6,128 nt of DNA from Beijerinckiaceae bacterium. GTDB taxonomy: Bacteria > Pseudomonadota > Alphaproteobacteria > Rhizobiales > Beijerinckiaceae. Each line of letters begins with the position of its first letter. Positions within the stretch are counted from its first letter, which is position 1. The stretch lies in NCBI GenBank assembly GCA_947380915.1, contig CANCSY010000198.1, positions 1 to 6,128 on the forward strand, written 5' to 3'. This document shows positions 5,276-6,128 of this stretch, one piece after another. Both the position numbers and the translations under genes were made by a program. A model generated the notes under the pieces. The model was not told the origin of the DNA and did no database searches. It saw only the letters and a program-made list of their open reading frames with translations.

Positions 5276-5351
5276 GGGGCCATAGCTCAGTTGGGAGAGC
5301 GCTTCAATGGCATTGAAGAGGTCGTCGGTTCGATTCCGTCTGGCTCCACCA
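5276..5351 (+). tRNA. tRNA-Ala (anticodon GGC)
   Basis: A complete 76-nt cloverleaf with encoded CCA. The acceptor stem GGGGCCA/TGGCTCC contains the G3-U70 wobble that marks alanine tRNAs. The D arm is GCTC-AGTTGGGA-GAGC. The anticodon arm CTTCA-ATGGCAT-TGAAG places GGC at 34-36 (reads GCC and GCU). The variable loop is AGGTC, and the T arm is GTCGG-TTCGATT-CCGTC with a U-U mismatch at 50-64. Discriminator A73 is followed by CCA at 5349-5351. An integrase gene follows 178 nt downstream, so the 3' half of this gene is the likely attachment site, with the gene kept intact by the element. Confidence 0.97.
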
Positions 5352-5357
5352 AAAATA
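5307..5357. other. inferred attachment site (att) of the integrated element at the tRNA-Ala 3' end
   Basis: Tyrosine recombinases beside a tRNA commonly recombine within its anticodon-to-3'-end segment. Here composition changes right after CCA at 5351, and an integrase follows in the same orientation. The core cannot be bounded without the other end of the element, so the limits given are only an approximate span covering the 3' half of the tRNA. Confidence 0.5.
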
Positions 5358-5361
5358 CCAG

Positions 5362-5385
5362 CAGAAACAAGCACTTAAGTTTCTG
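5362..5385. repeat. 7-bp inverted repeat just after the tRNA
   Basis: CAGAAAC (5362-5368) and GTTTCTG (5379-5385) are perfect reverse complements with a 10-nt spacer that includes most of the palindrome ACTTAAGT (5373-5380). No T-run follows, so it is a poor terminator. It may be a recombinase or excisionase binding site. Confidence 0.45.
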
Positions 5386-5395
5386 ACTCCTGCGA

Positions 5396-5426
5396 AAAGT
5401 AGCATACTCACACCCTATGCTACTTT
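5396..5426. repeat. 11-bp perfect inverted repeat at the island edge
   Basis: AAAGTAGCATA (5396-5406) and TATGCTACTTT (5416-5426) are perfect reverse complements around a 9-nt loop, CTCACACCC. The stem is AT-rich and ends in only three T, so a terminator role is weak. A dimeric protein site (excisionase, integrase arm or repressor operator) fits equally well. Confidence 0.65.
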
Positions 5427-5498
5427 GCCCGCTGGTTGCCCAATCCCACTTATCCACATAATCTGTCGCTCACACACTATAGCAGCTTTGCGGGCTTG
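5407..5498 (+). repeat. pair of imperfect direct repeats of about 30 bp upstream of the integrase
   Basis: Copies lie at 5407-5435 and 5469-5498. They share CTCACAC(C/A)CTAT, then GC, CTTTGC, GCT and G in order, with 23 of 30 aligned columns identical and one gap. Start-to-start spacing is 62 bp, close to six helical turns. This suits arm-type integrase sites or tandem operators; the role is inference. Confidence 0.5.
5436..5462 (+). promoter_or_regulatory. weak candidate integrase promoter overlapping a DnaA-box match
   Basis: CATAAT (5457-5462) matches the -10 consensus at five of six positions. The only -35-like sequence is TTGCCC (5436-5441), with a short 15-nt spacer. TTATCCACA (5450-5458), a perfect DnaA-box consensus, overlaps the -10. 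A start near 5469 would fall in the second direct repeat. Confidence 0.25.
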
Positions 5499-5529
5499 TG
5501 GGGGCGCTGTGGCATTACCTGCTGAGGAT

Positions 5530-6128
5530 ATGGAAACGGACGCTGTGGACGGCGCTGAGAGCGTTGGTGGGAAGTTTCGCACCACGCCAATCACCAGCAC
5601 CATACAGCAGGTTAAACAGCTGCCTCAGTCAGCCATCCTCTACAAATGCCTAGCCAGCAGCTACTGGCAGTTCCGTGTTTATTTGGACGGCGCTCAACGC
5701 AAGCGCAGCACGAAGAAGACAGACTTGTCTGAAGCGCAGCGTGAAGCCAAGCTTATCTACGCCGATATGCTACAGCAGATACACGGTAGTGAGCAGGGCA
5801 AACGCAAACTCAGCAGCAAGCGCACTCTCCACACAGTCGCCAACAGCTTGTGGGAGAAGCAGGCTGTTATGGTGTCACAGGGCGAACTGAACCCGCAGAA
5901 GAACCGCATAGACAAGTATGTGTATGACAAACACATCAAGCCGTTCTTCAAAGAATATGAGCTGAAGGACATCAACGCCGACACGCTTGAGCAGTTCAAG
6001 ATGTATCTGGTGCGCAAGCGTTTGGCGAAATCGTCGCAGAAGAGCTACTTCACCATCATCAGCAAGCTGCTACAGGAGGCGGTGAAGAAGCAGTTCATCC
6101 ACGCCGTGCCTATGATGCCCCGTGTGCG
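5530..6128 (+). CDS. tyrosine recombinase/phage-type integrase, N-terminal part (runs off the right edge)
   Basis: The frame is open from 5317 to the window end; 199 codons follow the first in-frame ATG at 5530. A charged N-terminus of about 35 residues precedes an arm-binding-like beta domain, YWQFRVYLDGAQRKRSTKKTD (45-65), and a helix SEAQREAKLIYADML (67-81). A SAM-like core-binding domain follows at about 98-195 (LHTVANSLWEKQ, IDKYVYDKHIKPFFKEY, LKDINADTLEQFKMYL, SSQKSYFTIISKLLQEAVKK). The catalytic Arg/His/Arg/Tyr residues lie beyond the window. The start is uncertain: GAGG at 5524-5527 is only 2 nt from the ATG, and GTG 5509 or TTG 5488 are alternatives without a clear ribosome site. Codon choice (ATA, CTA, TTG, CTT) differs from the GC-rich neighbours, indicating foreign origin. 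It probably catalyses integration of the element at tRNA-Ala. Confidence 0.85.
   Translation, partial: METDAVDGAESVGGKFRTTPITSTIQQVKQLPQSAILYKCLASSYWQFRVYLDGAQRKRSTKKTDLSEAQREAKLIYADMLQQIHGSEQGKRKLSSKRTLHTVANSLWEKQAVMVSQGELNPQKNRIDKYVYDKHIKPFFKEYELKDINADTLEQFKMYLVRKRLAKSSQKSYFTIISKLLQEAVKKQFIHAVPMMPRV

What the first reader, a model, noticed from the sequence alone, without database searches (positions are those of the whole stretch)
5276..6128. tRNA-Ala(GGC) is the probable entry point of an integrated element whose cargo lies to the right
An intact tRNA gene is followed, in the same orientation and after 178 nt, by a tyrosine recombinase with foreign codon use. Composition changes immediately after the CCA. 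This is the standard layout of a genomic island, prophage or ICE left end. Only the N-terminal 199 residues of the integrase are inside the window, so any undescribed system would be in the next sequence.
Basis: partly seen in the sequence, partly recalled or inferred. Interest (0 to 1): 0.7.

Follow-up and report, generated by a model that had tools for sequence, protein, structure and literature searches.

The report
Left end of a tRNA-Ala genomic island
A tRNA gene in an environmental bacterium marks the place where a mobile stretch of DNA, steered by its own integrase enzyme, has inserted; related bacteria show the empty site, the far end and different genes being carried, so this is a new example of a well-known kind of element.

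Summary
In detail: intact tRNA-Ala(GGC) at 5276-5351, an integrase frame from 5530, and a GC drop after the CCA. Relatives show that this is the left end (attL) of an integrated island. The DNA after the tRNA is 94-95% identical to two relatives whose flanking chromosome is only 82-85% identical, and it is absent from others. One of them (G034) also has a detached 45-nt tRNA 3' end, exactly window 5307-5351, followed by the flank that lies directly behind the tRNA in an empty-site genome. The 178-nt gap holds a feature not in the finding: an 11-bp inverted repeat (5396-5406/5416-5426). Its letters differ in step between integrase clades, and its word recurs as three direct copies just inside the far end of two related elements, so it is probably a pair of lambda-type arm sites. 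Related elements are about 10-15 kb, sit at tRNA-Ala or tRNA-Thr, and share a XerC-like gene, a roughly 110-aa gene and a DUF6641-type gene around exchangeable cargo; one cargo is a TET/kinase/amino-acid-transferase DNA-modification set. The window's own cargo and far end are unseen. A new member of a known kind; only the element family and one cargo are unusual.

The parts
5276..5351 (+). tRNA-Ala(GGC), regenerated target gene at the left end of the element
   Evidence: ARAGORN; Rfam; identical 76 nt in the 16 relative loci compared
5307..5351 (+). inferred attachment core (3' half of the tRNA, from the anticodon loop to CCA)
   Evidence: exact 45-nt detached copy in G034:C12; 46-47 nt copies in G024 and G037
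5396..5406 (+). putative integrase arm site, AAAGTAGCATA
   Evidence: changes on both sides across 9 loci
5416..5426 (-). putative integrase arm site, inverted copy TATGCTACTTT, 9 nt from the first
   Evidence: the word TATGCTAC occurs as three direct copies inside the right end of two related elements
5530..6128 (+). tyrosine integrase, N-terminal 199 residues, runs off the window
   Evidence: 96-97% identical to intact 461-463 aa homologues in G001 and G034
4737..5102 (+). FYDLN_acid family gene, chromosomal left flank used for synteny
   Evidence: syntenic in relatives

Best explanation
The window holds attL of a mobile element integrated by a lambda-type (arm-binding) tyrosine integrase into tRNA-Ala(GGC). 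Recombination occurs inside the 3' half of the tRNA (core 5307-5351). The element brings its own copy of that half, so the tRNA stays intact at this end and the displaced 3' half should lie at the far end. The integrase is inferred to bind five arm sites: an inverted pair beside its own gene (5396-5426) and three direct copies at the other end. The element is probably about 10-15 kb, non-viral, with the integrase at the left, exchangeable cargo in the middle, and XerC-like and DUF6641 genes towards the right. Shown by comparison: target tRNA, empty site in relatives, lateral movement. Shown in the window's sequence: the left repeat pair. Shown only in relatives: detached core, right-end copies, gene content. 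Inferred: that the repeats bind the integrase, and the size and cargo of this copy.
For: Element DNA is 93.7% and 94.6% identical to G001 and G034, whose adjacent chromosome is 81.8-85.5% identical; no element match in the fetched loci of G006, G017, G029 or G034:C98 (the G006 locus reaches 915 nt past the tRNA). Detached 45-nt core in G034:C12 with outer flank matching the G006 empty site at 89.6% over 211 nt. G006 tRNA-Thr element: two further tRNA-Thr 3' copies, with GC rising from about 0.52 to 0.66 behind the second. A relative in G455 whose integrase is 53% identical is complete: tRNA-Thr at L088:7157-7231, an 84% fragment at 17355-17399, 10.2 kb. Repeat pair on 9 loci: 3 pairs and 5 cells changed on both sides, covariation score 0.183 against at most 0.075 in slid controls. 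Three direct TATGCTAC copies at -80/-68/-55 (G006) and -79/-67/-54 (G034) from the tRNA-Thr core; the 9-bp direct pair occurs in 2 of 51 genus genomes, in both inside such a right end. Predicted fold of the 96% homologue: strand-strand-strand-helix N-terminal domain, mean pLDDT 86.4; best PDB match lambda integrase 1z1b, E 5.3e-9.
Against: The window ends inside the integrase, so catalytic residues, cargo and right end of this copy are unseen. No tRNA-Ala element of this type was recovered with its own right end: the G001 and G034:C62 contigs stop first, and the G034:C12 detached core lies next to a different integrase (int B), so that locus may be a tandem array. In one search half of the ten pairs never vary, and the number of further pair types is reached by 180 of 500 shuffles. 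In G555 the repeat pair has no perfect 8-bp match. Pfam arm-binding models gave no match for three family members even with E up to 10. TM-scores to lambda Int are moderate (0.44/0.56).
Confidence: 0.9

Rival explanations
1. A remnant: an integrase gene or stub left beside the tRNA after loss of the rest of an island, no longer mobile.
For: Distant relatives of this integrase (36-37% identical) exist as 1.5-1.7 kb integrase-only inserts beside tRNA-Thr(CGT) in G037 and G489. The window shows no cargo.
Against: The frame is open as far as it is seen; the DNA is 94-95% identical to two copies that are followed by at least 4.7 and 12.8 kb of further sequence after the integrase, unlike the empty-site flank; the repeat pair is perfect.
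Confidence: 0.12
2. A prophage or phage satellite rather than a non-viral island.
For: The integrase matches a phage integrase PHROG, some cargo matches phage PHROGs (exonuclease, methyltransferase), and one kinase domain matches PHROG 800, labelled terminase small subunit, at E 5e-11. A 179-aa protein of the G034 and G006 elements matches Pfam REP_ORF2-G2P weakly (E 2.8e-4, 21.6 bits, below the cut-off of 27.8).
Against: No capsid, portal, terminase or tail family among Pfam matches of 30 protein entries (E 0.001, 0.05; two genes were entered twice, and not every ORF was scanned). The only tail match was a PHROG at E 0.042. IMG/VR scans, which find close relatives only, gave none for the integrase, the 1184-aa cargo protein or the repeat pair.
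Confidence: 0.12
3. The inverted repeat at 5396-5426 is a transcription terminator or RNA hairpin behind the tRNA, not a pair of integrase arm sites.
For: It starts 45 nt behind the tRNA, is an inverted repeat with some changes on both sides and ends in TTT.
Against: The same word recurs as direct copies, which form no hairpin, just inside the right end at matching distances in two elements. It belongs to the element, not to the tRNA: the 120 nt behind the same tRNA in G006 and G017 lack it.
Confidence: 0.1

Closest known systems
tRNA-targeted genomic islands with a tyrosine integrase (Islander set, PMC4383910; abstract and passages seen)
   Same: intact tRNA at one end, displaced fragment at the other (here seen in relatives), integrase inside, tandem arrays, target switching
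   Different: host clade, integrase clade and gene content; own fragment not seen in the window
Arm-binding-domain tyrosine recombinases such as lambda Int and Tn916/Tn1549 Int (PMC8138268, passages seen; lambda Int 1z1b by fold)
   Same: predicted N-terminal domain, core-binding and catalytic domains; repeated short sites on both sides of the core in relatives
   Different: about 14% identity to lambda Int in the fold alignment; word AGTAGCATA; invariant Y where the first H of the usual HxxR box would be (the usual motif is recalled)
Rhizobial tRNA integration hot spots (Sinorhizobium meliloti, PMC11476347, passages seen)
   Same: 46-49 bp 3' tRNA cores at one hot spot, several islands per tRNA
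   Different: there tRNA-Lys(CUU) and tRNA-Asn(GUU), the latter with 27-28 bp cores, and a third gene; no tRNA-Ala in the passages that I saw

Membership tests
tRNA-targeted genomic island | intact tRNA gene at one end of the element | tested here: met
tRNA-targeted genomic island | tyrosine integrase gene on the element | tested here: met
   N-terminal 199 residues here; intact 461-463 aa homologues
tRNA-targeted genomic island | displaced tRNA fragment at the far end, same orientation | tested here: inconclusive
   own genome not held; present in G034, G006 and G455 relatives
tRNA-targeted genomic island | empty site in related genomes | tested here: met
   G006, G017
tRNA-targeted genomic island | history differs from the chromosome | tested here: met
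   93.7-94.6% against 81.8-85.5% identity
arm-binding (lambda-type) tyrosine integrase | N-terminal arm-binding domain | tested here: met
   by predicted fold of the 96% homologue only; no Pfam arm-binding match
arm-binding (lambda-type) tyrosine integrase | repeated arm sites on the integrase side of the core | tested here: met
   inverted pair in the window
arm-binding (lambda-type) tyrosine integrase | repeated arm sites on the other side of the core | tested here: inconclusive
   three direct copies in two tRNA-Thr relatives, two weaker ones in G455; the window's right end is unseen
arm-binding (lambda-type) tyrosine integrase | binding of the integrase to these sites | not testable with these tools
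   needs protein and DNA
prophage | structural and packaging genes | tested here: inconclusive
   none among Pfam matches of the scanned ORFs of relatives; not every ORF was scanned and the window's element is unseen
integrative and conjugative element | relaxase and type IV secretion genes | tested here: inconclusive
   none in the scanned ORFs of relatives; one HUH-type Rep-like protein with invariant GWHAHG and Y-x-x-K in 9 aligned sequences; not every ORF was scanned

The most novel reading that the evidence does not exclude
The window is the left end of a member of an undescribed family of about 10-15 kb non-viral elements. They use a lambda-type integrase whose arm word diverges with the integrase and whose targets range over tRNA-Ala, tRNA-Thr and tRNA-Val, carry a small HUH Rep-like protein in some members, and move exchangeable cargo between Beijerinckiaceae-type genomes. 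In one relative at this very tRNA (G034) and in G006 at tRNA-Thr the cargo is a DNA-base hypermodification set: a methyltransferase-like + TET/JBP + kinase fusion plus an amino acid:DNA transferase. Such sets are, as far as I recall, described mainly from phages (compare the listings).
Probability: 0.45. Interest if true: 0.55.

Novelty: new member of a known kind. Interest (0 to 1): 0.35.

Why it matters
It fixes one end of a mobile element to the base and gives a readable code for it (core plus arm words). Fragmented metagenome bins can then be searched for the right ends, and the two halves of elements in broken assemblies can be matched. The arm words differ between integrase clades while the tRNA target switches between Ala, Thr and Val, a natural series for studying how integrase specificity evolves. 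The family also carries at least one DNA hypermodification set with no close relative found in the viral collection scanned, whose purpose on a chromosome is open.

Tried and rejected
Own-genome check of the far end: not possible, assembly not held. IMG/VR scans with the integrase, the 1184-aa cargo protein and the repeat pair: no relatives (these scans use exact short words and find close relatives only). PDB search by profile: none. PADLOC on 10 cargo proteins: methyltransferase models for the fusion protein and one homing-endonuclease match at E 0.0018 for the exonuclease, so no case for a known defence island. I first read the G034:C12 detached core as the right end of the same element as C62; the neighbouring int B and the lack of the arm word make a tandem array more likely. 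The third tRNA copy in G034 (C98) is probably a contaminant contig: 78% to C62, 93.5% to G030. I considered the inverted repeat as a target of the XerC-like protein (FimB-like, recalled); the direct copies at the right end speak for arm sites. Literature: no paper of the held library has the word DUF6641. The listings (15, 15 and 10 papers shown) gave none that, by title or abstract start, describes this element; beyond listings I saw only passages of the three papers named above, plus the abstract of PMC4383910.

Full report
What is in the window. The left 5.1 kb is ordinary chromosome: an S1-domain gene, a Meth_synt_2-domain gene, a dienelactone-hydrolase gene, cytidylate kinase, EPSP synthase and a FYDLN_acid gene. 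tRNA-Ala(GGC) follows at 5276-5351, then a 178-nt gap and an integrase frame from ATG 5530 to the window end. GC falls from 0.601 (5103-5275) to 0.494 in the gap, and the integrase has the lowest codon score of the six genes compared. The nearest held genome is G001 (20% of the window's sampled words); a named contig of the same number and length is from a Beijerinckiaceae metagenome bin.

Is it an insertion? The window matches G001 from 575 to 6128 in one stretch, integrase included. The history differs across the tRNA: to G001, 83.7% (aroA+cmk) and 81.8% (FYDLN region) before it but 93.7% after it; to G034, 85.5%, 83.3% and 94.6%. The fetched loci of G006, G017, G029 and G034:C98 match the chromosome side only. 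Of the 20 loci, 15 have the intact tRNA and 2 of these 15 carry the integrase; two of the 15 reach only 305 and 379 nt past the tRNA. The outer flank of the detached 45-nt tRNA end in G034:C12 matches the G006 sequence directly behind its intact tRNA, 89.6% over 211 nt including the core, and G017 at 83.2% over 214 nt. So G006 and G017 show the empty site.

How often is this tRNA used? Of 61 genomes, detached 3' ends of 45-54 nt showed in G034, G037, G027 and G024. Across 397 genomes of the family, 136 hold the exact 40-mer of the tRNA 3' end and 13 of these hold it at least twice (my count from the listing). Same-strand pairs on one contig lie 45.7, 33.2, 11.8 and 5.8 kb apart in four genomes and 160 and 197 bp apart in two. 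I did not look at these pairs, so some second copies may be whole tRNA genes, and one copy in G034 is on a probable contaminant. The tRNA is probably a recurrent target.

The integrase and its sites. In the family sample 22 of 397 genomes have a relative at E 1e-10; in a sample of the order 1 of 397 at E 1e-30. Relatives sit beside tRNA-Ala(GGC), tRNA-Thr(GGT), tRNA-Thr(CGT) and tRNA-Val(CAC). In a small unrooted tree of the N-terminal part, with three fragmentary rows, the window, G001 and G034 (Ala) group next to G006 and G034 (Thr), with G475 (Ala) outside, so I infer that the target has switched. In the gap, 5396-5406 and 5416-5426 are a perfect inverted repeat. An alignment of nine loci gives 90% paired cells, 3 pairs with changes on both sides, and a score of 0.183 against 0 to 0.075 in slid controls; five of ten pairs never vary, and further pair types do not exceed shuffles (180 of 500 as high). 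The word TATGCTAC stands three times in direct order at -80/-68/-55 from the core in the G006 tRNA-Thr element and -79/-67/-54 in the G034 tRNA-Thr element. G455 has two weaker copies of its own word at about -71 and -56. A model of the G001 integrase has a three-strand-plus-helix N-terminal domain and matches full-length lambda integrase best. I infer heterobivalent binding; it is not shown.

The element family. G455 holds a complete element of 10.2 kb between tRNA-Thr and a fragment, with a second left-end-like sequence right behind it but no integrase in the 0.9 kb before the contig ends. In G006 the tRNA-Thr element is split over contigs C48 and C39, with two successive fragments, hence a likely tandem pair. 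G034:C62 (tRNA-Ala) and G006:C39 share 8.5 kb at 96%, while their integrase regions are 86% identical: cargo and integrase are exchanged. A 188-212 aa XerC-like recombinase is found in five elements (G034, G006, G455, G555, L032; the G034 and G006 copies are near-identical), and G001 shows only the near end of it by a 129-nt DNA match before its contig stops. A 103-118 aa protein is found in four of them. DUF6641-type proteins stand near the right end in three (G006, G455, L032) and again at the end of the second G006 element; the Pfam match was tested on the G006 copy only, the others were grouped by BLASTP. A 179-aa protein of G034 and G006 has an invariant GWHAHG motif and Y-x-x-K in 9 aligned sequences and matches a Rep family weakly. 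Cargo differs: G001 has a PolB-type exonuclease and a repeat protein; G034 and G006 have an 1184-aa protein with DNA_methylase, Tet_JBP and P-loop kinase matches and a 350-aa ADDT protein (tested on the G034 copies; G006 copy of the 1184-aa protein 97%). By eye the TET HxD, H and R residues are present, while the methyltransferase-like part lacks a PC motif at the expected place (reading against recalled motifs, not tested). Twenty-three homologues were listed, from a capped candidate set; two of them (P0128, P0129) carry the transferase domain in the same chain.

What this means. The kind of thing is well known: Islander describes the tRNA/fragment signature, tandem arrays and frequent target switching (abstract and passages), and arm-binding integrases are a large class (passages). 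Unusual are the particular family, the readable arm code and one cargo. Whether the window's copy carries that cargo cannot be told: the two closest copies carry different cargo.

Noticed in passing
L036:14213-18816 (G034:C62) and L086 (G006:C39): DNA hypermodification set inside the related elements: methyltransferase-like + TET/JBP + kinase fusion (1184 aa) and amino acid:DNA transferase (350 aa); 23 homologues listed, two of them with the transferase domain in the same chain.
   Followed up: partly
L090:144-1761 (G037:C101), L093:1712-3487 (G489:C60): Integrase-only inserts of about 1.5-1.7 kb beside tRNA-Thr(CGT) in which the 5' 38 nt of the tRNA, not the 3' half, are duplicated on the far side; L093 has a similar palindrome (ATGTAGCATGG...CCATGCTACAA) before the integrase start.
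   Followed up: partly
L037 (G034:C12), L040 (G037:C50), L042 (G024:C220): A second integrase type (int B, 406-aa frame in L037, shorter frames in the others) next to the detached tRNA-Ala 3' end and pointing inward, so two integrase types seem to use the same core from opposite ends.
   Followed up: partly
L029:11603-13099: Cargo protein with MORN repeats followed by an aspartyl-protease-like domain.
   Followed up: no
L091, L092, L095, L096 (and window 6128): Four relatives' contigs end inside this integrase gene family, perhaps because similar copies at other tRNAs break the assembly; the window also ends inside the gene, but whether its contig does is not known.
   Followed up: no
window 5352-5375; L038 behind its tRNA: The word ATACCAGCA of the element's first bases also occurs in the G017 empty-site flank, so the attachment identity may run slightly past the CCA or a trace of an element may remain there.
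   Followed up: no
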